From Prevotella sp. (GTDB taxonomy: Bacteria; Bacteroidota; Bacteroidia; Bacteroidales; Bacteroidaceae), in the NCBI GenBank assembly GCA_017483805.1, contig JAFUUL010000131.1, forward strand, positions 1-52,823: a stretch of DNA of 52,823 bases, in the 5' to 3' direction. Both the position numbers and the translations under genes were made by a program. Shown here piece by piece: positions 1,497 through 26,722 of the stretch (its first letter is position 1; every line of letters starts with the position of its first letter). The notes beneath the pieces were generated by a model. It saw only the letters and a program-made list of their open reading frames with translations, was not told where the DNA came from and did no database searches.

Positions 1497-1509
1497 GGTG
1501 GGGTGGTTT

Positions 1510-6196: not shown

Positions 6197-6218
6197 AGGT
6201 AAAAAGGTATTTACCTTT
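6195..6218. terminator. Palindrome between convergent trpS and trmD
   Basis: Arms AAAGGTAAA (6195-6203) and TTTACCTTT (6210-6218) around a 6-nt loop, overlapping both stop codons. An AT-rich 9-bp stem at a convergent junction fits a bidirectional terminator, though the stem is weak. Confidence 0.45.
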
Positions 6219-6891
6219 CCTCCAGCAGGTCAGGCCTTAGACGTTTCGTGCGCTCTAAGGCCTGTTCCAGTTCCCAGTTGCGTATCTTGGCCTCGTTGCC
6301 GGAGAGCAGGATGTCGGGCACACGCCAGCCCTTGTATTCGGCAGGGCGGGTGTAGATGGGGGCGGCCAGCAGGTCGTCCTGGAAACAGTCGGAGAGGGCC
6401 GACTGCTCGTCGCCGATGACGCCCGGCACCACACGCACCACGGCGTCGGCAATCATGGCAGCCACCAGTTCGCCGCCCGTCAGCACGAAGTCGCCGATGG
6501 AGATCTCGCGCGTGATGAGGTGGTCGCGTATGCGCTGGTCGATGCCCTTGTAGTGGCCGGCCAGGATGATCAGGTTGCCCTTCAGCGACAGTTCGTTGGC
6601 TATGTGCTGGTCGAAGCGCTCGCCGTCGGGCGAGGTGAAGATCACCTCGTCGTAGTCTCTCTCAGCCTTCAGCGCGCTGATGCAGCGGTCTATGGGCTCG
6701 CACTGCATGACCATGCCGGCGGAGCCGCCATAGGGATAGTCGTCCACGCGCCGCCACTTGTCGAGTGTGTAGTCGCGCAGGTTGTGCAGACGGATCTGGG
6801 CCAGGCCTTTCTTCTCGGCCCGTGCCAGTATGCTTTCGTGTACGAAGCCCTCGAGCATCTCGGGCAGTACGGTGATGATGTCTATTCGCAT
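6211..6891 (-). CDS. trmD: tRNA (guanine(37)-N1)-methyltransferase
   Basis: 226 residues. TrmD uses S-adenosylmethionine to methylate G37 next to the anticodon and so limits frameshifting. The sequence has the trefoil-knot SPOUT signatures: [13 protein letters not shown] at the N-terminus, [10 protein letters not shown] near 54-63, [12 protein letters not shown] and [13 protein letters not shown] in the knot, and a C-terminal helical domain ([19 protein letters not shown]). It starts 3 nt after the stop of the patatin gene with no promoter between them. It therefore appears to be the last gene of the long operon that begins at 23857, an unusual place for a gene normally found with ribosome-maturation genes. 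Confidence 0.96.
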
Positions 6892-6894
6892 TTC

Positions 6895-7755
6895 CTATAT
6901 GCTGTAAAAGTCTTTAATCTTCTCAATATATTCTTCGCCCTTGCGGCGGCCCATGTCGTAGACGCGCTGCATCTGCTGCGGGTCGTGACAGGTGTGGCCG
7001 ATGGGGATGGGGCCGTCGGGGCGGATGACCAGGCAGCGGCCCTGGCGTTCGGCCTCAGCGACATAGTCCAACTGGCGGTTGTACATCTCGTGGCGGCAGT
7101 CCAGGGCCTCCAGCAGGCGCGGATACCTGTGCAGGCCCAGGCGCATGAGCGGCATCAGGCGGTTGTGCTCCTTGCGGTAGCCCTGGGGCTGGGTCAGTAC
7201 GACCACGTTGCGCCCGATGCCCTCCTGCTCCTCCATATACTCCAGAGGTATGCTGTCGCTGATGCCGCCGTCCAGCAGGCTGTAGCCGTCGATATGGACC
7301 ACGCGCGAGACGAGGGGCATGGAGGCCGAGGCGCGTATCCAGTCGTAGGTGGTGCCCTCCACGCGGTCCAGCCAGCGATAGACGGGCTGACCGGTGAGCA
7401 CGTCGGTGCAGACGGCACAGAAGCGCATCGGGTTGGCGTTGAAGGCCTCGTCGTCGAAGACGTCGTACTCGCGGGGCACCACGTGGTAGGCGAACTCGGC
7501 GTTGAAGTAGTCGCCGCTCCTGAGCAGCGACCGCCAGCCGCTGTAGCGGGCATCGCGGGCGAAGCGCTTATTGTAGCGGATGGCGCGGCCCGGCTGCCGG
7601 CTCTTCATGTTGCAGCCAAAAGCAGCACCTGCCGAGACGCCTATCAGGGCGTCAGGGTAGGTGTTGCTCTCCATCATCACGTCGATGATGCCTGCCGTGA
7701 AGAGGCCGCGCATGGCGCCTCCCTCCAGCACGAGTCCTACGGGAGCGGGCTTCAT
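6895..7755 (-). CDS. Patatin-like phospholipase (YjjU type)
   Basis: 286 residues. Patatin-fold enzymes are Ser/Asp-dyad lipid acyl hydrolases. The oxyanion loop is LVLEGGAMRGLF at about 8-19, the nucleophile elbow is GVSAG (Ser41), and the Asp is in LLDGGISDSIPL near 160. No signal peptide is visible, so it should act in the cytosol or at the inner face of the membrane. The start overlaps the stop of the DUF2135 gene by 4 nt and the end is 3 nt from trmD, so translation is likely coupled. In this operon it could modify phospholipids at a membrane complex; that is inference from position only. Confidence 0.9.
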   Translation of the reverse strand: MKPAPVGLVLEGGAMRGLFTAGIIDVMMESNTYPDALIGVSAGAAFGCNMKSRQPGRAIRYNKRFARDARYSGWRSLLRSGDYFNAEFAYHVVPREYDVFDDEAFNANPMRFCAVCTDVLTGQPVYRWLDRVEGTTYDWIRASASMPLVSRVVHIDGYSLLDGGISDSIPLEYMEEQEGIGRNVVVLTQPQGYRKEHNRLMPLMRLGLHRYPRLLEALDCRHEMYNRQLDYVAEAERQGRCLVIRPDGPIPIGHTCHDPQQMQRVYDMGRRKGEEYIEKIKDFYSI

Positions 7756-8267
7756 GGCACGGTGATAGTGGTCACCGGCACCTTCTCGTGCAGGTTGTTG
7801 GGCGACATATGCACGTTGAATACCTGCGGCTCATGATCCTTGAGCAGGATGGTCACCTTGCAGTCGCCGTGGCGCTGGCTCTCGGGGCGGGAAGTCTTCT
7901 CGGCGTAGTAGACCAGGCTGACCTCATACTGTCCGCGTGGCGGATTGGACCGCCAGAAGATGTTCTCGGCAGCACCGCGTCCGCCGTCGGTGTCGTCTAC
8001 GTCCAGTTCGCCGCCGCTGTTGGAGTCCTTGTTGGTGTAGTCGATCTCCTCGCCGCTGGGCTCCACTACGTGCAGGTCGATGTCGGCATAGAAGTCCCAC
8101 TGCAGCGTGACCTTCAGGTCGCCGTTGCCGCCGATTTCCATCACGTTGCGCGGCACGTCCGGCAGGCTGGGCAGGCTGCAGCCGCGGCAGTTGAGCAGCA
8201 GGCCGAGCAGCAGCAGGATGATGAGCAGTACATAGACCAGTACCAGTATGATTCGCATTGCTTTCAT
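7752..8267 (-). CDS. Membrane-anchored DUF2135 (YfaP-type) protein
   Basis: 171 residues. One hydrophobic helix at about 6-26 (ILVLVYVLLIILLLLGLLL) is followed by Cys residues (NCRGC) and a periplasmic domain of the DUF2135/YfaP type: LQWDFYADIDLHVVEPSGE, GGELDVDDTDG, then PPRGQYEVSLVYYAE. That domain is a small beta sandwich with conserved acidic residues, likely metal-binding; its function is unknown. The topology would be cytoplasmic N-terminus with the domain outside the inner membrane. The gene overlaps the patatin start by 4 nt and follows DUF1294 by 21 nt in the same operon. A second ATG three codons in could be the true start. Confidence 0.8.
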   Translation of the reverse strand: MKAMRIILVLVYVLLIILLLLGLLLNCRGCSLPSLPDVPRNVMEIGGNGDLKVTLQWDFYADIDLHVVEPSGEEIDYTNKDSNSGGELDVDDTDGGRGAAENIFWRSNPPRGQYEVSLVYYAEKTSRPESQRHGDCKVTILLKDHEPQVFNVHMSPNNLHEKVPVTTITVP

Positions 8268-8288
8268 AATCGTCAGTGTGTTAGGTGG

Positions 8289-8594
8289 TTAGAGCGGCAG
8301 CGGGGTCTGGAACGGCGAGATGATCAGTCGCGCCACGATGGCCACGGCCAGTTGCAGGAAGAGCAGGATGGGCACGGTGAAGAGGAAGAGGTTCTTCTTG
8401 GTCTTGTGCTTGAAGAAGACCATGCCGCAGAGTGCTCCGAAGGCGCCGTTGAGGAAGGCAAAGAGCAGGAGCACAAACTCGGGTATGCGCCACTTCTGGT
8501 AGGTGGCCTGATGCTTGTCGTAGCCGAAGAGGGCAAACGAGATGACGTTGGGGAAGAAAATCAGTCCCAGGTATACTAATGCTAAGTAGTCCAT
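8289..8594 (-). CDS. DUF1294 membrane protein
   Basis: 101 residues with about three membrane helices (3-22, 38-58, 70-95). The family signature is clear: LFGYDKHQA at 22-30, WRIPEFVLLLFAFLNGAFG at 35-53 and FFKHKTKK near 60-67. DUF1294 proteins are small integral inner-membrane proteins of unknown function, sometimes found fused to a cold-shock or nuclease domain; this one is the bare membrane domain. It lies 18 nt after the stop of the Pro-Glu rod protein gene and 21 nt before the DUF2135 gene. Confidence 0.85.
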   Translation of the reverse strand: MDYLALVYLGLIFFPNVISFALFGYDKHQATYQKWRIPEFVLLLFAFLNGAFGALCGMVFFKHKTKKNLFLFTVPILLFLQLAVAIVARLIISPFQTPLPL

Positions 8595-8612
8595 AAGCGT
8601 GTGTCTGATTGA

Positions 8613-10004
8613 TTAAACGAATTGAAGTATTGCCTTGGTAGCCAGATCGATGGCCCCGCCTGCCACGAAGAAGATCACCACCAGTCCGGCAGCGGCTCCC
8701 AGCGCAGCCAGGATCTCGAGCAGATAGTCGCCCATGCCCTGCTCCTTTGTCTCCTGGAGCACGTACTCCTTCTCCTCGGGATCGAGGGTGAAGGTGATGG
8801 GGGGCAACTTGCGGTTGGGCGCTTCGATGGTGGCCGTCAGCGGCACATTGGGACGGAAGGTCTCGTTGCCCAGGTAGGTGATGCCGTGCTCGTTGAGGCG
8901 CGCCAGCACCTGCTGCTCGCCCTGACGGAAGCGGATGTTGCAGTTGGCAATGGGCAACTTGTTGAGTCCGATCACCTGCACGCTGATGTCGTGGGGCTGC
9001 TCCTCGGGCTGCTCCTCCGGTTCGGGCTCCGGTTCTGGCTCGGGTTCGGGGATGACGGGCTCCGGCTCTGGCTCTGGCTCGGGTTCGGGCTCAGGGGGTG
9101 GGGGAGGCGTCATGCTGTCGAAGCGGAAGGTGTGGCCGGCCTGGTTGAGGGTCTGCTGCTGCATGGCATCGCGGAAGCGGGCCGTGCAGACGTCGCCGGG
9201 ATGGAGAGCCAGCCCGACGGTGGCCTGTCCGGCCTCGAGCGTCAACTGATAGGTGCGTCCGTGGTAGTCGATGGTGGCCTCCTCGCCGCTGATGGGCTGG
9301 TTGTCGTGGGAGGCCTCTACGCGCACGGTGACGCGCTCGGTGATGTCGAAGGTGTACTCCGTCGTGCTGCGGTCGGTCAGGATGCTGAAGCGCTTGCCCG
9401 TGGCCTCGTCGATGAACTCGATGGTCGTGTCGGCATTGATCTTGCCCAGGGCATAGTCGCCGTGGGCATCGGTGGTGTGGGGCACATTCTTCATCGAGGT
9501 GACGATGAAGAACGGGCGGTTGGGCACCTTCTCGTCGTCGATGGTGAAGGCGATGCTGACGGGATGGGCTCCCTTGTCTTCCACCTCCACGCGCTGGTTG
9601 CCGATGATGGGCTTCTTGTGGTTGGTGGAGCCCCAGCCGGTGACGAGCACCTTCACCTGTCCGGCGGCATCGATCTGGTAGAAGACATACTCATCGTTGG
9701 GGATGGTCAGGATCTTCTCGGCCAGGTCAGGGTCGCTGCTCAGACGGGTGCGCACCTCCTGCTTGAGTTCATCCCAGCGCTGGCGCACCAGCATCTCCTC
9801 GGCGCCCTGGGCATTGGGCAGGGGAGTCCACTTGCCGTTGATGTTGACTGTCCACACGTGGGCGTTGCCTCCCACATTGACACGGGCGAACTGCTGGCTC
9901 AGGGCGTCGCCCAGTTTCTCCCTCAGTCGGTCGTTGGCCTGCGGGCCTTCGTTCCAGGAGAGAAGCCAGTGAATCTCTTTTAATGCTGCTTCTTTTACTT
10001 TCAT
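8613..10004 (-). CDS. Unknown protein with Pro-Glu rod and C-terminal membrane helix
   Basis: 463 residues, family not recognised. Residues 1-100 are mixed helical (LKEIHWLLSWNEGPQ); 100-295 look like beta domains (VTGWGSTNHKKPIIG, FTIDDEKVPNRPFF). Residues 299-338 are an almost pure Pro-Glu repeat. Residues 340-410 (VIGLNKLPIANCNIRF ... LNEHGITYL) resemble the small beta 'peptide-G-x-x-D-x-x-G' modules of carboxypeptidase-regulatory or VgrG-tail type. A membrane helix ends the protein (about 428-450). There is no signal peptide, so the bulk is probably cytoplasmic and tail-anchored, with the rod acting as a rigid spacer. It lies mid-operon between a secreted helical protein and DUF1294. Confidence 0.75.
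   Translation of the reverse strand: MKVKEAALKEIHWLLSWNEGPQANDRLREKLGDALSQQFARVNVGGNAHVWTVNINGKWTPLPNAQGAEEMLVRQRWDELKQEVRTRLSSDPDLAEKILTIPNDEYVFYQIDAAGQVKVLVTGWGSTNHKKPIIGNQRVEVEDKGAHPVSIAFTIDDEKVPNRPFFIVTSMKNVPHTTDAHGDYALGKINADTTIEFIDEATGKRFSILTDRSTTEYTFDITERVTVRVEASHDNQPISGEEATIDYHGRTYQLTLEAGQATVGLALHPGDVCTARFRDAMQQQTLNQAGHTFRFDSMTPPPPPEPEPEPEPEPEPVIPEPEPEPEPEPEEQPEEQPHDISVQVIGLNKLPIANCNIRFRQGEQQVLARLNEHGITYLGNETFRPNVPLTATIEAPNRKLPPITFTLDPEEKEYVLQETKEQGMGDYLLEILAALGAAAGLVVIFFVAGGAIDLATKAILQFV
9010..9104 (-). repeat. Hexanucleotide repeat encoding the Pro-Glu rod
   Basis: Imperfect 6-nt units of the GGCTC(C/T/G) / GGTTC(G/T) type on the plus strand encode Pro-Glu pairs on the minus strand. 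The unit length is a multiple of three, so slippage would change rod length without a frameshift. Confidence 0.8.
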
Positions 10005-10019
10005 ATCGCTTGGTGTTGT

Positions 10020-10820
10020 TTAATCGAGTTTAAGGTTGTTGATGTCGCTGACGGCATCCCCGGCATCCTTGGTCAGACTGAGGGGATTGGCCAGCAGGCT
10101 GGCGGTATAGACGTCGTAGCGCTGGCGCAGGTAGGGAATGTTCATGATGCGCTTCTGCACGGTCTCCTCGTATTGGGCGAGCACCTTCTGTACCAGTTCG
10201 CGGCAGAAGTCGCGCGAGGCCTCGTCGGTGTTGCCCTTGTAGTTCTTCAACTTGGCATCCACGTCGCGGATGAGGGCCTGGAAGTCCTTGGCGCCAGGAT
10301 AGTAGCGCGACATGTAGATGGCCAGCGTGTCGAAGTCGTTGAACTGCGCCTCTGTCAGTTCGCTGCCCGCCTTGCCCTTCAGGTTCTTGGTGATGTCGGT
10401 GGTGGCATCGGTGATGCCCTGACGGGCGAACGGCATCTGCAGCAGGCGTGAGTAATGGTGGTAGAGCGTCAGATACTGCTTGTAGGTCTCCACGCGGGCC
10501 AACTGCTCGTCGATCTCCTGGTTGCCCTTGAAGGGGGTGAGCCTGAGGATGTAGGCGTCGATCTCGGCCGCATCGGACTGCGAGAACGGCTTCTGCAGGT
10601 CGGGCGACTGACGGAGCAGGCGGTCCTTGATGAACTCGGTCCTGAACTGTGACAGGTCGCTCAGTTCGCGCTGCAGCGAGTCTACGGTCTGGCGGAGCGA
10701 ATCGTTGGCATGGCGCAGCGAGTCGATGGTCAGGCTGTCGGCTGTAGCCTTGCTGGTGTCGTCGGCCCACATAGCGGTGCCGACGAGCAGACAGGCGAGC
10801 GTTAGTAGGAACTGTCTCAT
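10020..10820 (-). CDS. Exported coiled-coil protein
   Basis: 266 residues. A signal peptide (MRQFLLTLACLLVGTAMWADD, cleavage near 19-20) precedes a coiled coil at about 28-62 with a heptad-like repeat of Asp-Ser-Leu (DSLTIDSLRHANDSLRQTVD). The rest is helical (LPFxRQGITDATTDITKNLK-like stretches, then YYPGAKDFQALIRDVDAKL) with no recognised domain. Export to the periplasm is likely. The gene starts 4 nt after the stop of the next upstream gene (10825-11628), another helical protein, and the two may be partners. Confidence 0.75.
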   Translation of the reverse strand: MRQFLLTLACLLVGTAMWADDTSKATADSLTIDSLRHANDSLRQTVDSLQRELSDLSQFRTEFIKDRLLRQSPDLQKPFSQSDAAEIDAYILRLTPFKGNQEIDEQLARVETYKQYLTLYHHYSRLLQMPFARQGITDATTDITKNLKGKAGSELTEAQFNDFDTLAIYMSRYYPGAKDFQALIRDVDAKLKNYKGNTDEASRDFCRELVQKVLAQYEETVQKRIMNIPYLRQRYDVYTASLLANPLSLTKDAGDAVSDINNLKLD

Positions 10821-10824
10821 GGGC

Positions 10825-11628
10825 TTAGTAGTTTTGTACGAACTTGTTCAGGTCGTTGTCGCCACCCAACTCGCGCAGGAAGCGGCTGTGCACCTGGGCC
10901 AGACGGTCGGTCTCGTGGGGCTCCAGGGGCTCGTAGGCGGCGATGATCTCGCGGGCCAGGCGGCTCTTGTAGGCACCCTTGGCGGCCTGCAGACGGCTGT
11001 CTATCTGGGCCAGTCCGCTGGTGATCTCGGTGATGTTGCTGATGTTGGCCCAGTAGGGACTCTGCTTGATGTCGCTGCACTGGCGCTTGATGGCGCTGCT
11101 ATGGCTGGCGAAACTCGTCCACTGGTCGGTCTCGGCATTGAAGCGCGGAGCCAGCGACAGGTTGCGGCTGGACAGGCTGCGGGCCTTGCGATAGAGGTCC
11201 ATCGTGGCCTTCATCTTGTTCACGTCGGCATTGCTGTTGAAGTGGGAGATCTTGGCCAGCAGGTGGTCCAGGGCATTGCCGTAGACCTCTATCTGCGTGT
11301 GGTCGCAGTCGGACTTGGCCCACTCGGCCATCATGACAGAGTCCAGCCGATGGCAGGCCAGTTCGCCGGTCAGGTCGACCAGCGTCTGGTAGCCGTCGCC
11401 CAGTTCGCGCCGGTTCTGCTTGAGGCGGTCCAGCGAGTTGTCGAAGAGGTCGGTATCCCACTCCTGGCTGGCGTTCCATTCGGTCAGCAGTTCACCCTTC
11501 ATCTTCTCCATCAGTCGGCCCTTGTCGCCCGTGATGGTCGTAGAACCGCTGCCTCCGCTCAGGAAGAGCAGTCCGACCACGGCGGCCAGCACGACGATGG
11601 CTATTGCTATAAGTTTGAGTGCTTTCAT
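10825..11628 (-). CDS. Membrane-anchored helical periplasmic protein
   Basis: 267 residues. One N-terminal hydrophobic helix at about 5-24 (LIAIAIVVLAAVVGLLFLSGG) is followed by an all-helical domain with no recognised family. It has no lipobox, so the helix is probably an uncleaved anchor with the domain in the periplasm. Its neighbours in the operon are the Pro-Gln rod protein (22 nt upstream) and the exported coiled-coil protein (4 nt downstream). Confidence 0.75.
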   Translation of the reverse strand: MKALKLIAIAIVVLAAVVGLLFLSGGSGSTTITGDKGRLMEKMKGELLTEWNASQEWDTDLFDNSLDRLKQNRRELGDGYQTLVDLTGELACHRLDSVMMAEWAKSDCDHTQIEVYGNALDHLLAKISHFNSNADVNKMKATMDLYRKARSLSSRNLSLAPRFNAETDQWTSFASHSSAIKRQCSDIKQSPYWANISNITEITSGLAQIDSRLQAAKGAYKSRLAREIIAAYEPLEPHETDRLAQVHSRFLRELGGDNDLNKFVQNY

Positions 11629-11650
11629 ATCTCGTTGTTGATGTTGTTAC

Positions 11651-12889
11651 TTATCTTTCTTCTACTGGGTTACCACCTGTTGTCGTGTCAGCCTTCTTCA
11701 CTGGCTTAGCAGGGTTGACAGGCTTGGCAGGCTGGGTGGCAGGCTGCTTCTTTTCGACGACGGGCTGCTCCTGCTGCGTGACGGGCTGCTCCTGCACCAC
11801 TTCTGCAGGCTCTTCGGTCACCGTGGCTTCTTCGTCTTCCATCGCTTCGCTTGCCGTGATGACTTCCTCTTCAGGCTGGGTCTCAGGCTGCGGGGCGGGA
11901 GTGTCGGTGCTTTCGGTGACGGTCTCCTGAGGGGTAGCGGGGGCATCTTGTTTATTGTAGAAGATGCTGGCTATGCCTGTGATGGCAAGACCGAAGAAGA
12001 AGGCAGCCAGAGGCACGACGAAGAACTTGATGATGGGGCCGAGGATGCTGCTGACAGTGCTGGGCTTTTCGCCCACATCCATATAGACCCGCTCCTGTGG
12101 CAGTTCGGGCAGCGGAACCGACGGCGACTTGACTACCGGGGCATACTGAGGCTTGGGAGTGCTCGGTGCACTCTGTGTGGCCTGAGGTCTCGGCGCGCTT
12201 TGCGGTTGCGGCTGCGGTTGGGGTTGCGGTTGTGGCTTCGGGGGAGCGGGCGGTGGCGTCATGGGCAGGGGAATCTGCAGGCCACTGACCACGGCGGAAT
12301 AGACCGTCGTGTTGCCCTTTTCGCCTATCACCACGCGCTTATAGCCCTGCAACTCCTGATAGTGCACGTTGCGGAAAAAGTCGGCCATCTGGTCTGCAGG
12401 CAGCAGCAGCACGGCATCGGCCTCTCCATGCATGGGGTACACGGCATCGTAGGACGGTACCAGGCTGTAGCGGGCCACGATGTCCTTGAACAACTGTTCG
12501 TCGGGCAAATCCTCCTTGAAGTTGTGGGTCTCGCTGAGAGAGGACTTCTGGGTCATGCACTCCTGCAGGAAGGTGTCGTGGACGTCCATCAGCAGGGCCA
12601 GGGGGCTCTCGTCGTTCGCCAGGCGATAGCCATTGGGGATGCCGATGGCCATCTTCAGCGCGCCCGGACGTACCGACATATAACTGCTGACATGATTCTG
12701 CACCAGCGTATACTGGGTGAACTTCTCTCCCGTCTCGAGCACGAAGAAATAGGAATTGTCCTCCATGCCGGGCGGAATGAGGTTCTCCAGTTGCTGCACG
12801 GGATTGTTGATCCAGTAGAGCGGCTGGAAGCCACTGTTGCTATTCTGGTTGCCGAAGATGGCAAGTGTGATTCTCGGATTGTCCATCAT
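11651..12889 (-). CDS. Unknown protein with Pro-Gln linker, one membrane helix and acidic tail
   Basis: 412 residues, family not recognised. Residues 1-205 are a globular domain (PRITLAIFGNQNSNSG..., VVIGEKGNTTVYSAVV). Residues 211-250 form a Pro/Gln-rich linker with a run of PQ pairs, and 284-309 a membrane helix (GPIIKFFVVPLAAFFFGLAI). The C-terminal 100 residues are rich in Glu, Pro, Thr and Gln, then basic near the end (KPVKKAD). With no signal peptide the N-terminal domain should be cytoplasmic and the acidic tail periplasmic. It lies between the GTPase gene (13 nt) and the anchored helical protein (22 nt). Two adjacent ATG codons open the frame. Confidence 0.75.
   Translation of the reverse strand: MMDNPRITLAIFGNQNSNSGFQPLYWINNPVQQLENLIPPGMEDNSYFFVLETGEKFTQYTLVQNHVSSYMSVRPGALKMAIGIPNGYRLANDESPLALLMDVHDTFLQECMTQKSSLSETHNFKEDLPDEQLFKDIVARYSLVPSYDAVYPMHGEADAVLLLPADQMADFFRNVHYQELQGYKRVVIGEKGNTTVYSAVVSGLQIPLPMTPPPAPPKPQPQPQPQPQPQSAPRPQATQSAPSTPKPQYAPVVKSPSVPLPELPQERVYMDVGEKPSTVSSILGPIIKFFVVPLAAFFFGLAITGIASIFYNKQDAPATPQETVTESTDTPAPQPETQPEEEVITASEAMEDEEATVTEEPAEVVQEQPVTQQEQPVVEKKQPATQPAKPVNPAKPVKKADTTTGGNPVEER
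12198..12241 (-). repeat. Hexanucleotide repeat encoding the Pro-Gln linker
   Basis: Imperfect 6-nt units of the GGTTGC / GGCTGC / GGTTGT type on the plus strand encode Pro-Gln pairs on the minus strand. Slippage would stay in frame. Confidence 0.75.
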
Positions 12890-12902
12890 ATCGCGTCAGG
12901 CT

Positions 12903-14687: not shown

Positions 14688-14713
14688 ATCTCTTTTCTGC
14701 TTTGTCTGTATGA

Positions 14714-15685
14714 TTAGATGCTCATGCCGCCGTCGTTGACGGGTATCTTCGTGTTCCTCTTGATGCGGTTACGCTTGGTGCGATAGGCCACGATGTAGTT
14801 GAACAGCACCATCAGGTGAAGCACGATGCAGACGGCCACGCCGATGATGGAGTAACTGCTCATGTCGCTGAATCGCTCGGCAAATGTGGTGGCGATGGGA
14901 TACTGGTTGGCCTCGTGGTTCTTGACGATGTCGGACACGTCGGCCTCGTTCTTATGGATGACGGGGAAGGGCAGGCTGGCCGACACCTCCTCGAGTTTGG
15001 CCGACACTTGAGGACCGAGGCCCTTCATGGCGTTGGCGGCCTCGGGAATCTTCAGCACGCTCCAACTCTGAATCTGCTCCGTGCAACGCTCCAGTTCGTC
15101 CTCCCAGGCGTCGTAGAAACTGCTCTGGGCCTGGTCGGTGACATTCTCTATTCGGTCCTGCCACTTGTCCTTGAAGTTGGCAATGCTGGCGGGAGTCAGT
15201 TCGAAGCCGTTGGCATCGACAAACTCTATCAGTTGGTCGGTGGATTCGCCCTGGGCAGCCAGTTCAAGGCCGGTGATCGTATTGGTCAGGGCGGCATTCT
15301 CCGTGCTCTGGAACTTCTCGATGCCCTGACGAATCAGGCTGATGTCCTCTGTGGCTGCTGCCTTCAGTTCGCCGGATGAGGCATAGATGGTGGCAAAGCG
15401 GGCCACCTTGTTGCTCGACAGCGCGGCAATGACGATGTAGAGGAAGAGCAGGATGCCCTCGATGATGCGCCATTTGACCAGGTCGGTGTCTGCCGTCTTG
15501 GCCTTGATGAGCAGCCAAAGCAGGATGCCGAAGCCGGCCGTCCAGGCTGCAGCCTTCAGGATGGCGATGCCGAGGTTGTCGCCAGAGTAGAAATATCCCA
15601 GGAAAAGGAAGACCAACAGGAGTACGATGCCAATGGTGGCAATGATGTTGGCCAGTGATATGCCGTTACTTTTGTTCTGTGCCAT
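14714..15685 (-). CDS. Four-helix inner-membrane protein with a periplasmic domain
   Basis: 323 residues. Three helices lie at about 10-32, 39-61 and 72-91 and a fourth at about 275-299. The intervening region (about 95-270) is helical and acidic (EDISLIRQGIEKFQSTENAAL) and should lie on one side of the membrane, probably periplasmic if the N-terminus is inside. The tail is basic (RTKRNRIKRNTK), supporting a cytoplasmic C-terminus. I do not recognise the family. It lies 22 nt behind the subtilase gene and 26 nt before the GTPase gene. Confidence 0.75.
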   Translation of the reverse strand: MAQNKSNGISLANIIATIGIVLLLVFLFLGYFYSGDNLGIAILKAAAWTAGFGILLWLLIKAKTADTDLVKWRIIEGILLFLYIVIAALSSNKVARFATIYASSGELKAAATEDISLIRQGIEKFQSTENAALTNTITGLELAAQGESTDQLIEFVDANGFELTPASIANFKDKWQDRIENVTDQAQSSFYDAWEDELERCTEQIQSWSVLKIPEAANAMKGLGPQVSAKLEEVSASLPFPVIHKNEADVSDIVKNHEANQYPIATTFAERFSDMSSYSIIGVAVCIVLHLMVLFNYIVAYRTKRNRIKRNTKIPVNDGGMSI

Positions 15686-15707
15686 AATATATATATAATA
15701 AGAGGTG

Positions 15708-17705: not shown

Positions 17706-17711
17706 AGTGTC

Positions 17712-20624
17712 TTATGATAGTTCGTTGATGATTTTGGTTAATTGCTCGTTGGCCTCGTGGTCGTAGTCGGGTATGTTCAGATGGGTGATGAACGATACGA
17801 GCATGTACTCGAGCCATGAGTAGTAGTTGTTCTCGAAGGCCGTGGTCAGCGCCTTGGGGCTGGAGGTCAGTTCGTCGAACATAGCGGTCAGTTCCTCTTC
17901 CTCGAAGGTCGAGGGGCGAGGCTTCTCAATATAGTTGAATGCAGCCAGGTGGCGCTTCTCGGCTATCTGACGGGCCTTGTTCACCTCGTCGGCATCGAGC
18001 AGGTGATAGCCCAGATCGATGACGAAACTGTTGATGGTGCTGGCCAGGATGTCGGCGATGAGGCTCTCGTTGATGGAGAACACGTTGACCACGTTGACAT
18101 ATTCTGCGATGGTGGCTGCCAGCAGGTCTTCCAGGTGCAGGTTCTTGCTGGTGTCTACGATCTCGTCTACGAGGTCCACCATCACGTCCATGTCGAACTG
18201 GTGACTGTTGGCCATCTGGTTCATGAACTCCAGCGACTTGATCTGGTTCTTCCAGAGCGTATAGACCTCCTCGGCGATGATGACCGAGTTGAGTTTCTTC
18301 TTGAACGTGCCGTCGAAGAGTTTCTTGTAGTCCACGTTGCGCTTCTCCAGATAGGCTTGTGCCTCCTCCTGAGAGTCCATCACGTAGCAGTCCATCAGCA
18401 CCTGCCAGCGCTCGTCGTTGTTCTTGCAGGCTTTCAGGGCCTGTCCGCAGCGCTTCATGATGATCTCGTAGTTGCTGGTGTCGTGGATCTTCTCGCTCAG
18501 TTCGCCGCTCTGAATCAGGTTGTGTATGGCCTGCAGGCTCTTCGTCTCTGTCAGTTCGAGCGACTGCAGCAGGTGTCCGAAGAAGTAACTGTCCTCGTTG
18601 CAGGTGAAGTCCATCTCGCGGATGATCTGGTTGGCCTTGCGGATGTTCTTCTTCAACAGGATATCGACATCCTCCGAGACGTGGAACTCGCTCATGATGG
18701 TGTGCACCTTGCCCATAGCCACCCTGCAGTAGTCTTCAAACTGAATGTCGCGTGTCTTGTCCATGACAGCCGCCACTTTGGCCAACTGCTCGATGATGTA
18801 CAGGGCACCGTCGTTGTTCATACTGGCTGTGGCATCCCATACCATCTCCCTGTTCTGGAAGAACATCTCCGTGTGCTTGCTCTCGCAGAAGGTTTCACGC
18901 AGTAGGTCCAGGTAGGCTCTGTCTACGAGCAACTTGTCCTCCTTGCCGCGCTCACGGAATCCGTCGTAGATCTTCGAGCCTTTCATGCCTGAATACTTGA
19001 AGTCGCGCAGCAGGTAACTGTTCCTGAAGTATTCGCCAGGCCTCGTCCAGTTGTTGGCCCACTTGGTGCTGTCCACGTCGAAACATTCCTTGTAAAGCAC
19101 CTTCGTGAATCGCTCGCCCCATCGTCCGTCGATACTTGTTCGTCCGTTTGCCGATGGGTTCTGATCCTCCTGCATGGTGATGTTGAACTTGGTTGCCACG
19201 AAGAACAGGGGCGAGATGCCGCCAGTCAGTTGCAAGGTCCTTGCGCGCTCTTCGGGCGTTGCTCCCACGTACTGTGACACCCAGTCGCTGAGGGTGCTTG
19301 GTATCGTGTTGACGTCGCACTGGGTGTTGTCCTGACAGAACATCAGGATGTTGACCACGCGTGACTCTGAGTATTTATTAAAGAGGTATGCCACCTTACC
19401 ACGCAGCAGCATTCGCGTGAGCACCTTTCCTTCGCTGAGCGAACTGAACTCTCCGCCCATTCTCGAGCGTGCGCCAGGGAAGTCGAGCAGGTCAGTATGC
19501 TTCAGCAGGTCCAGTTTGATGGGACCTTGTGTGAGGCGTGAGCGCACGGCGTTGTCTGTGATGTCCTCGAAACTGTAACTGGCTGTGCTCTCTAGGAAGT
19601 CTGGACCTATGAGTACCACGATCTCGGCACAGACGGCAGACAACTCGCACTTGAGCATGGCCGGTATGGTGGTGAAGGTGCCGTTGGCCTGTTTGAGATG
19701 GGCGTCGCACACGTGGCTGGTGTCGCCTGTTCCCAGACCGTCGAGACACTGGACGCTCATAATCGTGTTCTCGTTCTCCTCGTGGTGCAGCACGGCATCG
19801 ACGCCGAAATACACGTCGCTGCAGAACTGCAACTTGCTCATCGTGGCGAGCAGTCGGCGGTAGAGTGGGGTGAGGTAGTCGTTGTTGTCGTCTGTCTTGC
19901 GCCAGAGTATGGAGAAGATGTCAGGATAGTCGGCCACAGGTATGCGGTCGATGACGAGTGCCAACTTGTCGAAGAAGTTACTGGCCCTGAACTCCTGCGC
20001 CTTCATGATGTGGTGCTTGAAGTACTCCTTCATCTCCAGCATGTCGTCGGCCGTGATGGGTGATATTGATGCTGGCTGTGCCGCCTTGTACTTCTCATAC
20101 AGTTGGTCGGCAATGGCGTTGATGGAGTTACGGTCTGGCGTGTCAGAGTCCTTCAGGTCGTTGAAGTAGCCGTCGCAGAGCAGGAGCGTGAGGTCCATCA
20201 CGGAGAGGGTCTTCATCAGGATGGGATACTTGCGCTCATGGCGACTGGGGTTACGCACGAAGGATGAGAATCGCGTGACGACGCCAGTAGCCTCGGTGTC
20301 GTGGGTGATGGGGTTCATCTCGTTGATGAAGTTGTACTTCCGCTCCTCGTCCTCCACCTCGAAGGCTTTCACAATCTTCCCTCCGTCGGGCAGGGTCTCC
20401 TGCCGTTGTAGCATGTTGCTCATGAGGTACGACTTACCCACCTGGCTCTTGCCGTAGGCCGCCATGGCAGGGTTGTCTTTCTCTGCTTCTTCTATCTTGC
20501 GCAGTTTGCGACGCTCGTCTACAAGTTGCATGAAGCGCTGCTCGTAGTGCTCGGGCTTGTTCTTCTTGATCCAGGCAAGCGACTTGTTGATAGCCTCGAT
20601 TTTGTTTCTAATCTCTAGTATCAT
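17712..20624 (-). CDS. SrfC-like large GTPase (putative virulence factor family)
   Basis: 970 residues. An N-terminal helical segment (1-52) leads to a P-loop at 58-65 (AAYGKSQVGKSYLMSNML); a DxxG-type motif LLDFPGARSR lies near 380 and VATKFNI is a candidate base-recognition motif. The rest is long and helical with no membrane segment. Size, P-loop position and its place directly behind an SrfB-like gene match the SrfC family of SrfABC operons, which has dynamin-like features. I identify it from motifs and neighbourhood, not from an alignment. The start is the ATG at 20624, 35 nt after the SrfB-like gene stop. Known SrfABC loci have been linked to virulence; the biochemical role is unsettled. 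Confidence 0.7.
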   Translation of the reverse strand: MILEIRNKIEAINKSLAWIKKNKPEHYEQRFMQLVDERRKLRKIEEAEKDNPAMAAYGKSQVGKSYLMSNMLQRQETLPDGGKIVKAFEVEDEERKYNFINEMNPITHDTEATGVVTRFSSFVRNPSRHERKYPILMKTLSVMDLTLLLCDGYFNDLKDSDTPDRNSINAIADQLYEKYKAAQPASISPITADDMLEMKEYFKHHIMKAQEFRASNFFDKLALVIDRIPVADYPDIFSILWRKTDDNNDYLTPLYRRLLATMSKLQFCSDVYFGVDAVLHHEENENTIMSVQCLDGLGTGDTSHVCDAHLKQANGTFTTIPAMLKCELSAVCAEIVVLIGPDFLESTASYSFEDITDNAVRSRLTQGPIKLDLLKHTDLLDFPGARSRMGGEFSSLSEGKVLTRMLLRGKVAYLFNKYSESRVVNILMFCQDNTQCDVNTIPSTLSDWVSQYVGATPEERARTLQLTGGISPLFFVATKFNITMQEDQNPSANGRTSIDGRWGERFTKVLYKECFDVDSTKWANNWTRPGEYFRNSYLLRDFKYSGMKGSKIYDGFRERGKEDKLLVDRAYLDLLRETFCESKHTEMFFQNREMVWDATASMNNDGALYIIEQLAKVAAVMDKTRDIQFEDYCRVAMGKVHTIMSEFHVSEDVDILLKKNIRKANQIIREMDFTCNEDSYFFGHLLQSLELTETKSLQAIHNLIQSGELSEKIHDTSNYEIIMKRCGQALKACKNNDERWQVLMDCYVMDSQEEAQAYLEKRNVDYKKLFDGTFKKKLNSVIIAEEVYTLWKNQIKSLEFMNQMANSHQFDMDVMVDLVDEIVDTSKNLHLEDLLAATIAEYVNVVNVFSINESLIADILASTINSFVIDLGYHLLDADEVNKARQIAEKRHLAAFNYIEKPRPSTFEEEELTAMFDELTSSPKALTTAFENNYYSWLEYMLVSFITHLNIPDYDHEANEQLTKIINELS

Positions 20625-20659
20625 AGTTGTTCCTTTTTTCTAATGCTACACGTTTGTTC

Positions 20660-23600
20660 TTATTTAATCGCAAGTTCAAATTCTCCCTTGTCGAGCCAGT
20701 ACTTGCCGTCGTCGACGATGGACTGGAGCACGAGTTCCACCTCGCGCTTGGGCAGCGTGTTGCCCTCATCGTCCATAGCCTCCTCGATAACCAGGTCTTC
20801 GCGGCTCTCATAGTAGTTGCGCGAGAGGGTGATGCGCAGCGACGGGCGTGACGAGTGGTTGTAGATGGCGTAGAGCGGACGTGCCTGATAGAGCGGCGAG
20901 TTGAACTGCTTGCAGCCGATGAATGCAGGGAAGACGGCGATGTCGATGGTGGCAGAGCCGTTGGTTGGTGTGAGATAGGACTTGGCAACCTGCTGCCTCT
21001 GTGAGTTATAATTACCTAAGTAGCAGGCCGTTGACTTCATGTTCTTAATCATTCGCCCGAAGTCTATGCTCATGCCGTTGAAGCCCTGGTTGGCGGCCAG
21101 GTAGCCCACCATGCCACCTACGGCCACTACCGACTTCTGGTCGTAGAAGTAGCCCTGTCCGTCGGCAAATGGGAACCACGTGCCGATGCGGTAGTCGTTC
21201 AGGCGGATCAGACGGTCAGGCGACGTGGGTATGTACTTGATGAAGAGTTCGGTGATGGCATCGAGCGACGAGGGACGTCCTGCCAGGATGAGCACGTCGC
21301 AGTGGTGTGCATAGAGCACCACGGAGAGTTGTTTCATCAGCGGCTCCATTGTGTTCTTCACGATGGTGGCCACCTCCTGCGGGTCGAAGTGCCAATTCAG
21401 TTCCGTGAACGAGAAGCCGAAGTGGTGCTCGAAGTATTCCAGCAGGTAGTCGGCAGGCTTCAGTTTGCCGAAGAGGTCGTCGAAGGTGAAGGTGCGCATG
21501 GGGCGGTGCAGGCGCAGGTGCTCCATGAAGGTCTGTGCGATGGGCACGGAGATCTGCGTGTTGAAGTCCACGCGGCAGCGGCGGTCGCGATGGGTCATCA
21601 TCGAACTGTCGAAGCCGAAGAAGTCGCGCAGCAGGTTCGAGGCGAAGGCCTTCAGCAGCATGGTGCGGCGATCGGGGTTGTCCTTCTCGTTGACGATGTC
21701 GTACATCTTGCTCGTGTACACCTGGTTGCCCTTCAGGCAGGGCAGGGCCTGCAACTCTTCGTCGCTCATGTTCCTCAGACGGGTGAACACAGCGCTGAAG
21801 ATGTTGCCCTGGTTGGGTTTGTCGTGCTCCTTACCCTCGATCACGAGGTTCTGCACCAGGTTGTGCAGTATCTCGTCGCCTGCCAGGTAGAAACTGTCCC
21901 AGTAGATGGGTGTAGGCACCAGTTTGCTGCGCCCCTCGCCGTAGTACTGGTAGGAGCATATCATGACGTCTGTCGTGCCGGCGCCGATGTCGATGGAGCC
22001 GATGGTCAGCGACTTGCCCTCGTAGCCCTCGGCCTTCTCCTCTGGGCGCACGTGGCCCTTCAGTTCGATGAACTTGTGAATGTCGCCGCTGTAGCGCTGG
22101 GCAATCTCGGCATAGAGATAGACCAGTTGGCAGCAGGAGGCCTCGTCGAAACTCCACATGCGGTCCTTCGAGTCCATCTCGTCGTCCTTGATGCGGAGCG
22201 ATGCCGAGGTGGGCGTGACGGTGGGCGAGCCGAAGGCTGGCGTGCAATGCTGCAGGGCCTCGATGGCGTTCTCAGCACAGCGGCGCAGTTTCTCTTGCTC
22301 CTTGCGCGGCATGGCCGTGGGACAGGTGATGATGATGTTGCGCAGCAGTCGCTTGCAGTCCATGTTGCCGTGCTTGGTGCGGAACTTGATGCTGTTGATC
22401 TGCGTGGTGGCCTGCTGCAGTATCTCGATGAGCACGAAGGTCATCAGCGAGGCGCGCGAGTAGTTGCCGCCGTCCAGGTTGTCGTCGTTGCCGTCAGGGC
22501 CTATGTAGTTGCCTGAGTGGTCGAACAGGTCCGACAGGCGCGCGATATATATATTGTCGGCCAGGCGTATGTTGCTGGGGTCGTCGACGGTGGTCAGGAA
22601 CTCCCAGCGGCCGTCGAAGGGCTTTTCGTCCCACAGGTAGCGCTTGGGGCTGCTGTAGTTGGTGGTCTTCTCGCTCAGTCCGTCCTCCTCCAGCGAGCGG
22701 TAGACCAGTCGCTTGGCCTCGTCGCCCACGCGCACCAGGCTCTTCCACTCGAAGGTGTCGTCGTCCAGCACGATGGCGTTGCCGAAGTCGGCCTTGCGGA
22801 AGGCCAGTCGCATGTCAAACGACTTCTCGTAGGTGATGTTGGGGTCAGAGAGGTCGCGTATCTCCAGCATGGCGGCCTTGGTGAAGTCGCCCTCCTCGAA
22901 TAGCACGCCGCAGGTGCGCGAGTTACCGATGTCGAGCACCAGGTCCACGTCGATGGTCTTGCGCTGGTTGTTGTGCAGCATGATCTCGGGTGCGGCTCCC
23001 AGCGTGCGTATGAAGTTGACCAGATAGATATAGTATCCGATGTACTTGCGCGACTCGGTGCGGTTGTACTGTCCCAGCAGGCTGGAGAAGTAGTCGGAGA
23101 AGGCGGGGAAGTAGTCGGAGACGGACATGAAGTCGAGCAGTTCGTCGGCCCGGTTGCACAGGCAGAACTCCTTGTGGTCTTCCTCGTCCTCGTAGAAGAA
23201 CGGCTGCTTGTAGTGCACCATCGACTCGTCCATGTCGTCGCTGAAGTAGATGGTGTTAGACCGCTCGGCCAGTGGATCGGGGTCGCCCAGGGTGGTGTCG
23301 AAGGCCCAGAGGAAGCGGTAGCGCATGTAGCCCTTCTTGCTGCCCTCGCCCACACAGTCTATCCTGACGCGGCACCAGGTGAAGGGGTCGCCGGCGGTCA
23401 CGCCGTCAATCTCCTTCTCGAACATCGGCATTGGCAGCCACTTGCCCAGTATGAGGTCGAAGGCCGTGTTGATCTGGCCTTGCTGGTCCTTCACGCGGTA
23501 GCCTGCCAGCGAGTTGATGTTGAAGATCTCGCTGTCGCCGTCCTGATAGGATGAGAAGAGTGCTGTCGACTCGTCCTTCCTCATCTTGATCAGACCGGCG

Positions 23601-23857
23601 TCGTCCAGTTCCTCGCGTCCGTTGGGGCGTTTCTCTGTCATGTCGCTCTGTCGCAGTTCGCTCAGAGGGATGTACAGACCTTCCTGACTGTGGTAATAGA
23701 GCAGGTCGAAGATTTGCTCGCCTGTGATGAAGTCTGAGGTCTCACAGAAGGCGTACTTCAGGATTTTCCCGTTTGGGAAAGCCAGTTGCTCGGCTGGGTT
23801 GAATTCTTTCTCGGTGGCGATGAAATGAATTCCGCTGTTGGCAATTAGATGTTCCAT
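20660..23857 (-). CDS. SrfB-like actin/HSP70-fold ATPase
   Basis: 1065 residues from the ATG at 23857; a TTG one codon earlier is less likely. Three motifs of the actin/HSP70 ATPase fold are in order: LVLDIGNSRTCGV near 305-317 (phosphate 1), IGSIDIGAGTTDVMICS near 622-638 (phosphate 2) and VLILAGRPSSLDAI near 855-868 (adenosine). With the length near 1000 and an adjoining SrfC-like gene this fits the SrfB virulence-factor family. The N-terminal 290 residues and the large insert between the phosphate motifs are specific to the family. No signal peptide or membrane helix is visible. It is the first gene of the long operon and has a strong promoter about 83 nt upstream. Confidence 0.82.
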   Translation of the reverse strand: MEHLIANSGIHFIATEKEFNPAEQLAFPNGKILKYAFCETSDFITGEQIFDLLYYHSQEGLYIPLSELRQSDMTEKRPNGREELDDAGLIKMRKDESTALFSSYQDGDSEIFNINSLAGYRVKDQQGQINTAFDLILGKWLPMPMFEKEIDGVTAGDPFTWCRVRIDCVGEGSKKGYMRYRFLWAFDTTLGDPDPLAERSNTIYFSDDMDESMVHYKQPFFYEDEEDHKEFCLCNRADELLDFMSVSDYFPAFSDYFSSLLGQYNRTESRKYIGYYIYLVNFIRTLGAAPEIMLHNNQRKTIDVDLVLDIGNSRTCGVLFEEGDFTKAAMLEIRDLSDPNITYEKSFDMRLAFRKADFGNAIVLDDDTFEWKSLVRVGDEAKRLVYRSLEEDGLSEKTTNYSSPKRYLWDEKPFDGRWEFLTTVDDPSNIRLADNIYIARLSDLFDHSGNYIGPDGNDDNLDGGNYSRASLMTFVLIEILQQATTQINSIKFRTKHGNMDCKRLLRNIIITCPTAMPRKEQEKLRRCAENAIEALQHCTPAFGSPTVTPTSASLRIKDDEMDSKDRMWSFDEASCCQLVYLYAEIAQRYSGDIHKFIELKGHVRPEEKAEGYEGKSLTIGSIDIGAGTTDVMICSYQYYGEGRSKLVPTPIYWDSFYLAGDEILHNLVQNLVIEGKEHDKPNQGNIFSAVFTRLRNMSDEELQALPCLKGNQVYTSKMYDIVNEKDNPDRRTMLLKAFASNLLRDFFGFDSSMMTHRDRRCRVDFNTQISVPIAQTFMEHLRLHRPMRTFTFDDLFGKLKPADYLLEYFEHHFGFSFTELNWHFDPQEVATIVKNTMEPLMKQLSVVLYAHHCDVLILAGRPSSLDAITELFIKYIPTSPDRLIRLNDYRIGTWFPFADGQGYFYDQKSVVAVGGMVGYLAANQGFNGMSIDFGRMIKNMKSTACYLGNYNSQRQQVAKSYLTPTNGSATIDIAVFPAFIGCKQFNSPLYQARPLYAIYNHSSRPSLRITLSRNYYESREDLVIEEAMDDEGNTLPKREVELVLQSIVDDGKYWLDKGEFELAIK

Positions 23858-23939: not shown

Positions 23940-23971
23940 CAAATTTAAGGATTTTTTCTTGCATCCACAAA
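23940..23971 (-). promoter_or_regulatory. Promoter of the SrfB/SrfC operon
   Basis: On the minus strand TTTG (23971-23968), a 20-nt spacer, and TAAATTTG (23947-23940). It is the only good promoter found for the minus-strand run from 23857 to 6211. The leader to the ATG at 23857 is about 75 nt and holds no obvious structure. Confidence 0.75.
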
Positions 23972-24497: not shown

Positions 24498-24557
24498 ATC
24501 ATTTTTTCCGATATTCCTCACTTTTTCCTCTGAAAATCGTCTTCGTCCGGACGGGGA

Positions 24558-24635
24558 GTTTGGACGAAGCAAACCTGGAGTTTGGACGGAGCAAACTCGG
24601 AGTTTGGACGAAGCAAACCCCAGGTTTGGACGAAC
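24558..24635. repeat. Tandem 22-nt palindromic units (family A, block 2)
   Basis: Three full cores at 24558-24574, 24580-24596 and 24602-24618 and a truncated fourth starting at 24624, all in 22-nt register. Cores read GTTTGGACG(A/G)AGCAAAC, the same as in the block at 1431-1496. The block lies between the divergent promoters of the HExxH gene and ligA. Confidence 0.9.
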
Positions 24636-24646
24636 CTGACGCTTAA

Positions 24647-26722
<2,076 letters not shown>

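What the first reader, a model, noticed from the sequence alone, without database searches (positions are those of the whole stretch)
6211..23857. Thirteen-gene operon combining SrfB/SrfC-like NTPases, a membrane subtilase, a second GTPase and several membrane proteins
Seen: all genes from 23857 to 6211 run on one strand with gaps of 3-35 nt or a 4-nt overlap, and the only good promoter is at 23940-23971. Contents: actin/HSP70-fold ATPase, large GTPase, anchored S8 protease with complete triad, four-helix membrane protein, second GTPase with repeated modules, two single-helix proteins with Pro-rich rods, two exported or anchored helical proteins, DUF1294, DUF2135, patatin, trmD. Known: SrfB and SrfC come from SrfABC virulence-linked operons of Proteobacteria. 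Inferred: a membrane-spanning, NTP-driven assembly with its own protease and lipase. I do not know a described Bacteroidales system with this set.
Basis: partly seen in the sequence, partly recalled or inferred. Interest (0 to 1): 0.88.

Follow-up and report, generated by a model that had tools for sequence, protein, structure and literature searches.

The report
Mobile SrfABC–subtilase membrane cassette of Bacteroidota
An eleven-gene cassette found as a block at different places in gut and environmental Bacteroidota joins two 'virulence factor' NTPase proteins to a membrane-held protease and several membrane proteins; it looks like a self-contained machine that couples energy use inside the cell to proteolysis at its envelope, and it suggests that the virulence label of these genes is misleading.

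Summary
The operon is real. SrfB (Pfam E 1e-169), SrfC (6e-111) and the S8 subtilase are certain. The unit is g01-g11 (7752-23857), not thirteen genes: patatin and trmD sit together without the cassette in relatives. In 78 related loci, where enough DNA is held, SrfC lies downstream of SrfB in 72 of 72 and S8 in 70 of 70; SrfB-SrfC-S8-4TM-GTPase keep that order in 58 of 65. SrfB is in 5 of 60 relatives, own included.

New here: SrfA, the third Srf protein, is present in pieces. Its N-terminal domain (SrfA-N, predicted cytosolic, then one TM helix) fronts the protease in long-type cassettes (34 of 36) and PR2 in the window type; g11 matches the tail of alphaproteobacterial SrfA. In Alphaproteobacteria SrfA-N-TM carries trypsin or vWA instead. 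So SrfA-N looks like an exchangeable membrane adaptor beside two NTPases. Best reading: NTPase-gated envelope-sensing protease complex; anti-phage defence is a weaker rival (no defence-gene enrichment upstream). Function untested.

The parts
23940..23971 (-). Bacteroidales-type promoter (-33 TTTG, -7 TAAATTTG; pattern recalled)
   Evidence: direct reading; pair also visible before srfB in 6 of 7 relatives printed
20660..23857 (-). g01 SrfB: probable actin/HSP70-fold ATPase (DIGNSRT, DIGxGTTD, AGRPxS motifs; fold recalled, not tested)
   Evidence: Pfam SrfB E 1.2e-169; alignment A1
17712..20624 (-). g02 SrfC (Virul_Fac): large P-loop NTPase, GKSQVGKS at residues 58-65
   Evidence: Pfam Virul_Fac E 6e-111; P-loop in 85 of 86 homologues, [NT]KxD in only 26 of 86
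15708..17705 (-). g03 membrane-anchored subtilase (TM 27-45, S8 238-505, C-terminal domain shared with long-type S8)
   Evidence: Pfam S8 E 1.8e-32; triad 77 of 81; C-terminal domain hhalign E 1.8e-23; TM
14714..15685 (-). g04 four-TM protein with a long loop (mean 183 aa) between TM3 and TM4, predicted periplasmic
   Evidence: 66 of 68 family members have four TMs by hydropathy; K+R pattern
12903..14687 (-). g05 GTPase with N-terminal repeated (YfiO/TPR-like) modules and a double-GTPase-like P-loop domain
   Evidence: P-loop 77 of 81, [NT]KxD 73 of 81; Pfam DO-GTPase2 in 10 and DO-GTPase1 in 7 of 51 family members at E<=0.1, best 1.3e-5, window itself no hit
11651..12889 (-). g06 'PR1': N-terminal domain of unknown fold, Pro-rich rod, one TM (289-307), acidic tail
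   Evidence: 13 of 15 chosen downstream regions
10825..11628 (-). g07 'hel1': N-terminal TM (6-24) plus helical domain
   Evidence: 12 of 15 chosen downstream regions
10020..10820 (-). g08 'hel2': exported coiled-coil protein (signal peptide by eye)
   Evidence: 14 of 15 chosen downstream regions, two copies in 5 of them
8613..10004 (-). g09 'PR2': SrfA-N-like domain, E/P-rich rod, C-terminal TM (431-449)
   Evidence: hhalign of 13 PR2 N-termini against SrfA-N: probability 97.9, E 5e-13; match in 17 of 22 cassette genomes, a few of these only to the low-complexity rod
8289..8594 (-). g10 DUF1294 membrane protein
   Evidence: Pfam E 1.1e-21; 14 of 15 chosen downstream regions
7752..8267 (-). 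g11 TM-anchored protein homologous to the C-terminus of alphaproteobacterial SrfA-like proteins; last cassette gene
   Evidence: hhalign of 18 g11 proteins: probability 98.4, E 9e-15; 9 of 15 chosen downstream regions
6895..7755 (-). patatin: flanking gene, not part of the cassette
   Evidence: beside trmD without srfB in G013, G018, G020
6211..6891 (-). trmD: flanking housekeeping gene
   Evidence: found in 32 of 36 genomes; trpS-trmD-patatin without cassette in L103

Best explanation
It is a horizontally spread, self-contained Bacteroidota version of the SrfABC system, extended by a subtilase, a second (double-GTPase-like) GTPase and membrane proteins. SHOWN by sequence: a conserved cassette; SrfB and the P-loop protein SrfC; SrfA split into an adaptor domain (SrfA-N, predicted cytosolic) attached through one TM helix to exchangeable extracytoplasmic modules (subtilase, trypsin, vWA, other domains). 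INFERRED: SrfB and SrfC, with the second GTPase, assemble on the inner face of the inner membrane on SrfA-N (PR2) and PR1; the 4TM protein, hel1, hel2 and g11 form the periplasmic sensing and structural part; envelope perturbation or surface/neighbour contact changes the nucleotide state of the complex and licenses the anchored subtilase to cut a periplasmic or envelope target. The result would be an envelope-surveillance protease switch comparable in logic, not in homology, to DegS or TagQRST-PpkA.
For: Gene order kept in 58 of 65 loci; downstream set kept in 15 chosen regions. A SrfA-N model seeded on three proteobacterial SrfA proteins finds 54 domains (seeds included) in the ORFs of the srf loci and their flanks, each starting within the first 30 residues, and no SrfC hit at E<=10 in any round. 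It is in 34 of 36 long-type S8 proteins and 0 of 37 short ones, where the PR2 family carries it. Genome-wide it occurs in 3 of the 5 srfB-positive and 0 of the 55 srfB-negative relatives. K+R is higher before than after the TM in 45 and equal in 11 of 58 SrfA-N proteins. Alphaproteobacterial SrfA-N-TM proteins carry trypsin (L101, L155) or vWA (L157), so protease coupling recurs with an unrelated protease. Two annotated alphaproteobacterial operons also hold vWA, ABC ATPase, permease and SUMF1/FGE genes after srfC (Pfam FGE E 6.5e-20, vWA and FtsX only below cut-off); tagQ, ppkA and mostly tagRST lie near srfBC in host-associated Deltaproteobacteria (PMC3608642, section 16 read), and TagQRST-PpkA senses outer-membrane damage (PMC11881912, passages). 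A Salmonella srfC mutant is a poor swarmer but normal swimmer (PMC4219756, passages). Xenorhabdus SrfA, B and C co-immunoprecipitate (PMC6950479, abstract).
Against: No experiment on any Bacteroidota member; no structure could be predicted. The window's own S8 has no SrfA-N, so its coupling rests on PR2 or other contacts, and the profile A6 does not reach E 0.001 anywhere in the window's genome. Tag-like genes are not in the Bacteroidota cassette; PMC6082577 (passages) calls TagQRST restricted to Pseudomonas, so the alphaproteobacterial genes may be only similar in make-up. Most of those Deltaproteobacteria lack a T6SS (PMC3608642). Some relatives lack the 4TM gene and L021 lacks the 4TM-GTPase-PR1-hel block. 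SrfC lacks an obvious G4 motif here. Substrate unknown; S8 could be constitutively active.
Confidence: 0.45

Rival explanations
1. Anti-phage or suicidal conflict system: phage-induced perturbation is sensed, the NTPases act as a threshold, and the subtilase or membrane proteins kill or arrest the infected cell.
For: Patchy, mobile cassette; next annotated gene after BREX genes (brxC to brxL, 1.3 kb away, same strand) on a Runella plasmid; second GTPase resembles double-GTPases of proposed conflict systems (PMC7159879 sections 27 and 29 read).
Against: Defence genes are not enriched upstream: 60 PADLOC families matched by 132 upstream neighbours against 54 by 124 control proteins at E<=1e-15 (downstream side not tested, controls only roughly matched). 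No PADLOC hit for SrfB, only E 0.23 for SrfC. No relative in viral contigs or phages. No recognised toxic effector other than the protease.
Confidence: 0.22
2. Export or assembly machine: SrfB/SrfC and the second GTPase power assembly of an envelope structure from hel1, hel2, PR1 and PR2, and S8 matures a component or substrate.
For: Coiled-coil exported proteins, Pro- and Glu/Pro-rich rods, duplicated hel2 and SrfA-N genes; S8 scores best among NCBIfam models with type VII mycosin, E 1.8e-30 but below its cut-off.
Against: No secretin, outer-membrane pore or known secretion ATPase among the hits of the cassette proteins; S8 is replaced by trypsin or vWA on the same adaptor in Alphaproteobacteria, and the Rahnella operon shows no protease.
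Confidence: 0.2
3. Secreted tripartite toxin or virulence factor acting on eukaryotic cells, as the family name and the Xenorhabdus work suggest.
For: Names of PF07520/PF10139; cytotoxicity reported for Xenorhabdus SrfABC (PMC6950479, abstract and introduction); Salmonella srfA/srfB called virulence factors reported to modulate inflammatory signalling (PMC5820949, passage).
Against: SrfA-type proteins have a TM with the adaptor predicted on the cytosolic side; no TM in SrfB; relatives are in rumen/gut MAGs and free-living Bacteroidota such as Niastella and Gelidibacter.
Confidence: 0.05

Closest known systems
SrfABC operon of Enterobacterales (SrfA_fam NF040486, SrfB PF07520, SrfC PF10139)
   Same: SrfB and SrfC homologues side by side; SrfA-N domain and a SrfA-C-like domain present
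   Different: SrfA is split or fused to a subtilase; adds 4TM protein, second GTPase, PR1, hel1, hel2, DUF1294 and g11; order is B-C-(A parts)
Alphaproteobacterial srf operons (Methylobacterium, Rhizobium, Cereibacter, Gluconobacter, UR115; L101, L102, L155-L157)
   Same: several SrfA-N-TM proteins with exchangeable extracytoplasmic parts, including proteases
   Different: trypsin or vWA in place of S8; vWA/ABC/permease/FGE block (annotated in L155 and L156) in place of the 4TM/GTPase block
DO-GTPase/GAP1 conflict systems (Kaur et al. 2020, PMC7159879)
   Same: double-GTPase-like GTPase beside membrane proteins; protein with TM directly downstream; an ATPase partner
   Different: no GAP1 match in 30 PR1 proteins; SrfB does not hit HSP70 in Pfam; SrfB occurs 0 times in that paper
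TagQRST-PpkA pathway
   Same: trans-envelope sensing logic; gene-neighbourhood link to srfBC in Deltaproteobacteria (PMC3608642)
   Different: none of its domains found in the window cassette

Membership tests
SrfABC system | SrfB profile PF07520 | tested here: met
   E 1.2e-169
SrfABC system | SrfC profile PF10139 adjacent to SrfB | tested here: met
   E 6e-111; gap 35 nt
SrfABC system | one-piece SrfA gene (NF040486) upstream of srfB | tested here: not met
   none of the ten window proteins scanned (DUF1294 not among them) hits NF040486 at E<=1; SrfA-like pieces lie downstream in g09, g03, g11
SrfABC system | SrfA-N domain somewhere in the operon | tested here: met
   PR2 family, hhalign E 5e-13; single-sequence level: no hit in G000 with profile A6 at E 0.001
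DO-GTPase conflict systems | double-GTPase domain | tested here: inconclusive
   10 and 7 of 51 relatives hit DO-GTPase2/1 at E<=0.1, window itself none
DO-GTPase conflict systems | GAP1 protein | tested here: not met
   0 of 30 PR1 proteins
Known anti-phage systems | PADLOC model hit for core proteins | tested here: not met
   only the generic subtilase model for S8, E 1.4e-13; others E>=0.02 (DUF1294 and g11 not scanned)
TagQRST-PpkA | FGE protein, FtsX/ABC pair, kinase with vWA | tested here: not met
   no such Pfam hit in the cassette proteins
Subtilase S8 | Asp/His/Ser triad | tested here: met
   D245, H287, S473; 77 of 81 homologues

The most novel reading that the evidence does not exclude
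SrfA-N defines a broad class of trans-envelope signalling machines in which a cytosolic actin-fold ATPase and a second NTPase read or drive membrane proteins that share one adaptor domain but carry interchangeable periplasmic effectors (subtilase, trypsin, vWA, beta-domains). The Bacteroidota cassette is a mobile eleven-gene form with its own second GTPase; the 'virulence factor' name hides an envelope-surveillance and response system unrelated to host toxicity.
Probability: 0.4. Interest if true: 0.86.

Novelty: new variant of a known kind. Interest (0 to 1): 0.72.

Why it matters
SrfB and SrfC are annotated as virulence factors in many genomes, with no agreed function (PMC3608642 calls the function unclear). 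Showing that their partner SrfA is a membrane adaptor joined to different extracytoplasmic proteases, and that gut commensals carry the system as a mobile cassette, gives a concrete, testable role (NTPase-gated envelope proteolysis) and a defined set of eleven genes to delete. It would also remove a misleading label used in pathogenicity surveys.

Tried and rejected
Defence-island idea: tested with PADLOC on upstream neighbours and controls and not supported. I scanned 132 of the 176 upstream proteins and 124 of the 141 control proteins listed, dropped by hand to stay under the size limits and to thin near-duplicate loci. Controls are starts of contig 5 of cassette-bearing genomes and regions around trmD/ligA of srfB-free relatives. 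The tool counts families, not proteins, and showed 25 of the 60 and of the 54.

A loose SrfA-N iteration (E 0.01) drifted into SrfC and was discarded; the strict one did not. In one search the labels g09 and g11 on S8 proteins come from profile drift and were not used. One search failed on a script error; mis-scored single-sequence families and was redone in 33. An S8 comparison had an empty set and printed an old result; it was redone in 61. Window-type S8 tails against Rahnella SrfA-C alone gave probability 1.7; only long-type tails reach it (87.8, E 3e-6). PR1 against the alphaproteobacterial 334-aa proteins: no match beyond the TM. The 593-aa Methylobacterium protein looked caspase-like by eye but has no Pfam hit at E<=0.01. 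SrfB and SrfC match no solved structure at E<=1; PR1 and SrfA-N give only chance-like hits (best E 0.08 and 0.03); g05 hits a putative lipoprotein and BamD/YfiO-type chains with its repeats (best E 4e-4).

Selection to tell: the 15 downstream regions were picked from the 17 of 22 genomes in which PR2 had matched, so PR2 in 15 of 15 is by construction and the other counts hold for that group; five genomes gave no PR2 match. The more distant loci G217, G045, G004 and G032 show no DUF1294 downstream.

Literature: one search found 0 papers with SrfB, SrfC and Bacteroid*. Judged from titles and abstract starts of capped lists, searches show no paper on this gene set; 15, 74 and 109 listed no paper about SrfB among the top rows and are weak negatives. 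The library lacks most subscription journals.
Full report
1. What is in the window. Thirteen minus-strand ORFs run from 23857 to 6211, with gaps of 3-35 nt and one 4-nt overlap. A Bacteroidales-type promoter lies at 23971-23940; the same TTTG...TAnnTTTG pair is visible before srfB in 6 of the 7 relatives printed. Pfam gives SrfB 1.2e-169, Virul_Fac (SrfC) 6e-111 and Peptidase_S8 1.8e-32, DUF1294 1.1e-21 and Patatin 2.8e-19. g05 and g11 have no Pfam hit at E<=1, and g04, g06, g07, g08 and g09 only hits below the curated cut-off. SrfC has the P-loop (85 of 86 homologues) but rarely an [NT]KxD motif (26 of 86, not in the window), so I call it an NTPase; g05 has both (77 and 73 of 81).

2. Which genes belong together. 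Two of them repeat loci already held (L071, L083) and were left out. In the other 78 (all but L067 named as Bacteroidota), counting only loci with enough downstream DNA, SrfC lies downstream on the same strand in 72 of 72, S8 in 70 of 70, the 4TM protein in 60 of 67, the GTPase in 62 of 65, PR1 in 32 of 64 at HMM sensitivity, and the first five genes are all there in order in 58 of 65. In 15 further downstream regions, picked from genomes where PR2 had matched (17 of 22), DUF1294 is present in 14, hel2 in 14, PR1 in 13, hel1 in 12, g11 in 9, patatin in 1. Beyond the cassette the genes differ from locus to locus (by eye; part of that output was cut). The more distant loci G217, G045, G004 and G032 show no DUF1294 there, so DUF1294 and g11 mark the window's own group. 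Patatin and trmD are flanks: in G018 (L103) the order is trpS-trmD-patatin-one gene-ligA-g00 without cassette, and in G037 trmD and ligA are neighbours. The cassette therefore sits between patatin/trmD and ligA. I fix the unit in the window as g01-g11, 7752-23857.

3. Distribution. SrfB is in 5 of 60 relatives (own genome included) and 2 of 395 genomes drawn from the phylum (own included). The SrfB tree mixes families, with rows named Prevotellaceae, Muribaculaceae, Rikenellaceae, Flavobacteriaceae, Chitinophagaceae and others (quick tree, MAG names may be wrong). Two distant copies come from one MAG (BRZ_LB__bin49: L030 59%, L086 30%). No relative was confirmed in viral contigs or phages; 142 plasmid records match, 114 of them Klebsiella and one Runella, where srfB is the next annotated gene after BREX genes, 1.3 kb downstream.

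4. SrfA in pieces. The S8 protein of G217 hits NCBIfam SrfA_fam (E 4e-22) in two stretches. A SrfA-N model seeded only on three proteobacterial SrfA proteins then found 54 domains (seeds included) among the ORFs of srf loci and flanks, each near an N-terminus, with no SrfC hit at E<=10 in any round. Since that database holds srf loci only, the independent test is genome-wide: of 60 relatives SrfA-N is found in 3, all srfB-positive, and in none of the 55 without srfB; the window's own divergent copy is below that threshold. A serine could be placed in 73 of 81 S8 proteins: 34 of 36 long ones have SrfA-N, 0 of 37 short ones do. The window is the short type; its PR2 family has the domain (hhalign 97.9, E 5e-13). 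g11 matches the C-terminus of SrfA-like proteins of Methylobacterium and Rhizobium (98.4, E 9e-15). Short and long S8 share the C-terminal domain (99.6, E 1.8e-23), and the long one matches Rahnella SrfA-C (87.8, E 3e-6), while the short one alone does not (1.7). Of 64 SrfA-N proteins 56 have exactly one TM after the domain, 2 more, 6 none; basic residues favour SrfA-N inside in 45, are equal in 11, and oppose it in 2 of 58.

5. The same plan elsewhere. Five alphaproteobacterial plasmid loci hold 12 SrfA-N proteins, each with a TM. Their outer parts include trypsin in L101 and L155 and vWA in L157. NCBIfam also places SrfA_fam in the L155 protease (E 1e-16). L155 and L156 add vWA, ABC ATPase, permease and SUMF1/FGE genes after srfC; Pfam confirms FGE (6.5e-20), but vWA and FtsX stay below cut-off. 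The make-up recalls TagT/S/R and PpkA; orthology was not tested, and PMC6082577 (passages) calls TagQRST restricted to Pseudomonas. Rahnella has plain srfABC.

6. The second GTPase. Pfam DO-GTPase2 and DO-GTPase1 are the two families most members match (10 and 7 of 51 at E<=0.1; best 1.3e-5), followed by YfiO (6 of 51), which fits the repeated N-terminal modules. It is a likely relative of double-GTPases, not a proven member; no PR1 protein hits GAP1 (0 of 30).

7. Mechanism. Shown: composition, order, domain links, predicted topology. Inferred: an inner-membrane complex in which SrfB, SrfC and g05 act on SrfA-N and PR1, while the anchored subtilase and the 4TM, hel1, hel2 and g11 proteins face the periplasm; envelope perturbation gates proteolysis. 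Support by analogy: exchange of proteases on one adaptor; srf genes near tagQ, ppkA and mostly tagRST in host-associated Deltaproteobacteria, all but one without T6SS machinery (PMC3608642, section 16 read); damage sensing by TagQRST-PpkA (PMC11881912, passages); swarming defect of srf mutants (PMC4219756, passages); co-immunoprecipitation of SrfA, B and C (PMC6950479, first of four parts read). Against: no experiment in Bacteroidota, no structure, unknown substrate, no Tag-like genes here, and reports that treat srf genes as virulence factors (PMC6950479; PMC5820949, passage).

8. Internal losses. L020, L022 and L023, close to the window, and the more distant L084 lack the 4TM gene; L021 runs from S8 straight to PR2-like, DUF1294 and g11-like ORFs; L091 shows neither 4TM nor GTPase; L094 has 4TM and GTPase upstream of srfB instead. 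So the 4TM-GTPase-PR1-hel block looks separable from SrfB-SrfC-S8.

9. Verdict. A new variant of a known kind: SrfB/SrfC membership is met, a one-piece upstream SrfA is not. No paper found in the searched library describes the Bacteroidota set or SrfA-N as an adaptor (within the limits told). The re-check changed facts (SrfC's GTPase status, selection of the 15 regions, Tag caveat) but none on which the odds were built, so they stand.

Noticed in passing
window 1406-1505 and 24533-24654: Two arrays of the same 22-nt palindromic unit (GTTTGGACGAAGCAAAC core), one by a REP-transposase-like ORF, one between g00 and ligA; other 22-nt-period arrays with different cores at 44054-44137 and 47980-48089.
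   Followed up: partly
window 260-1489 and 1640-3790: By eye: a REP-associated-transposase-like ORF and a VapE-like P-loop ORF not far from trpS, perhaps mobile-element remains left of the cassette.
   Followed up: no
L099 1-19159: BREX genes (brxB domain to brxL) upstream, same strand, 1.3 kb before the srf cassette on a Runella plasmid.
   Followed up: partly
L011/L012 (G051): Seven SrfA-N proteins in one locus, some alternating with TM proteins that share a juxtamembrane motif: looks like an adaptor-effector array.
   Followed up: partly
L042, L043, L047 upstream of srfB: Two similar-sized genes (about 565 and 250 aa) directly before srfB in three related loci; possible accessory genes.
   Followed up: no
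L128 1-3630: By eye, HsdM/HsdS-like and RhuM-like ORFs downstream of a cassette.
   Followed up: no
L067: Contig named Limnohabitans carries a Bacteroidota-type cassette nested with Algoriphagus in the tree: probably binning contamination.
   Followed up: no
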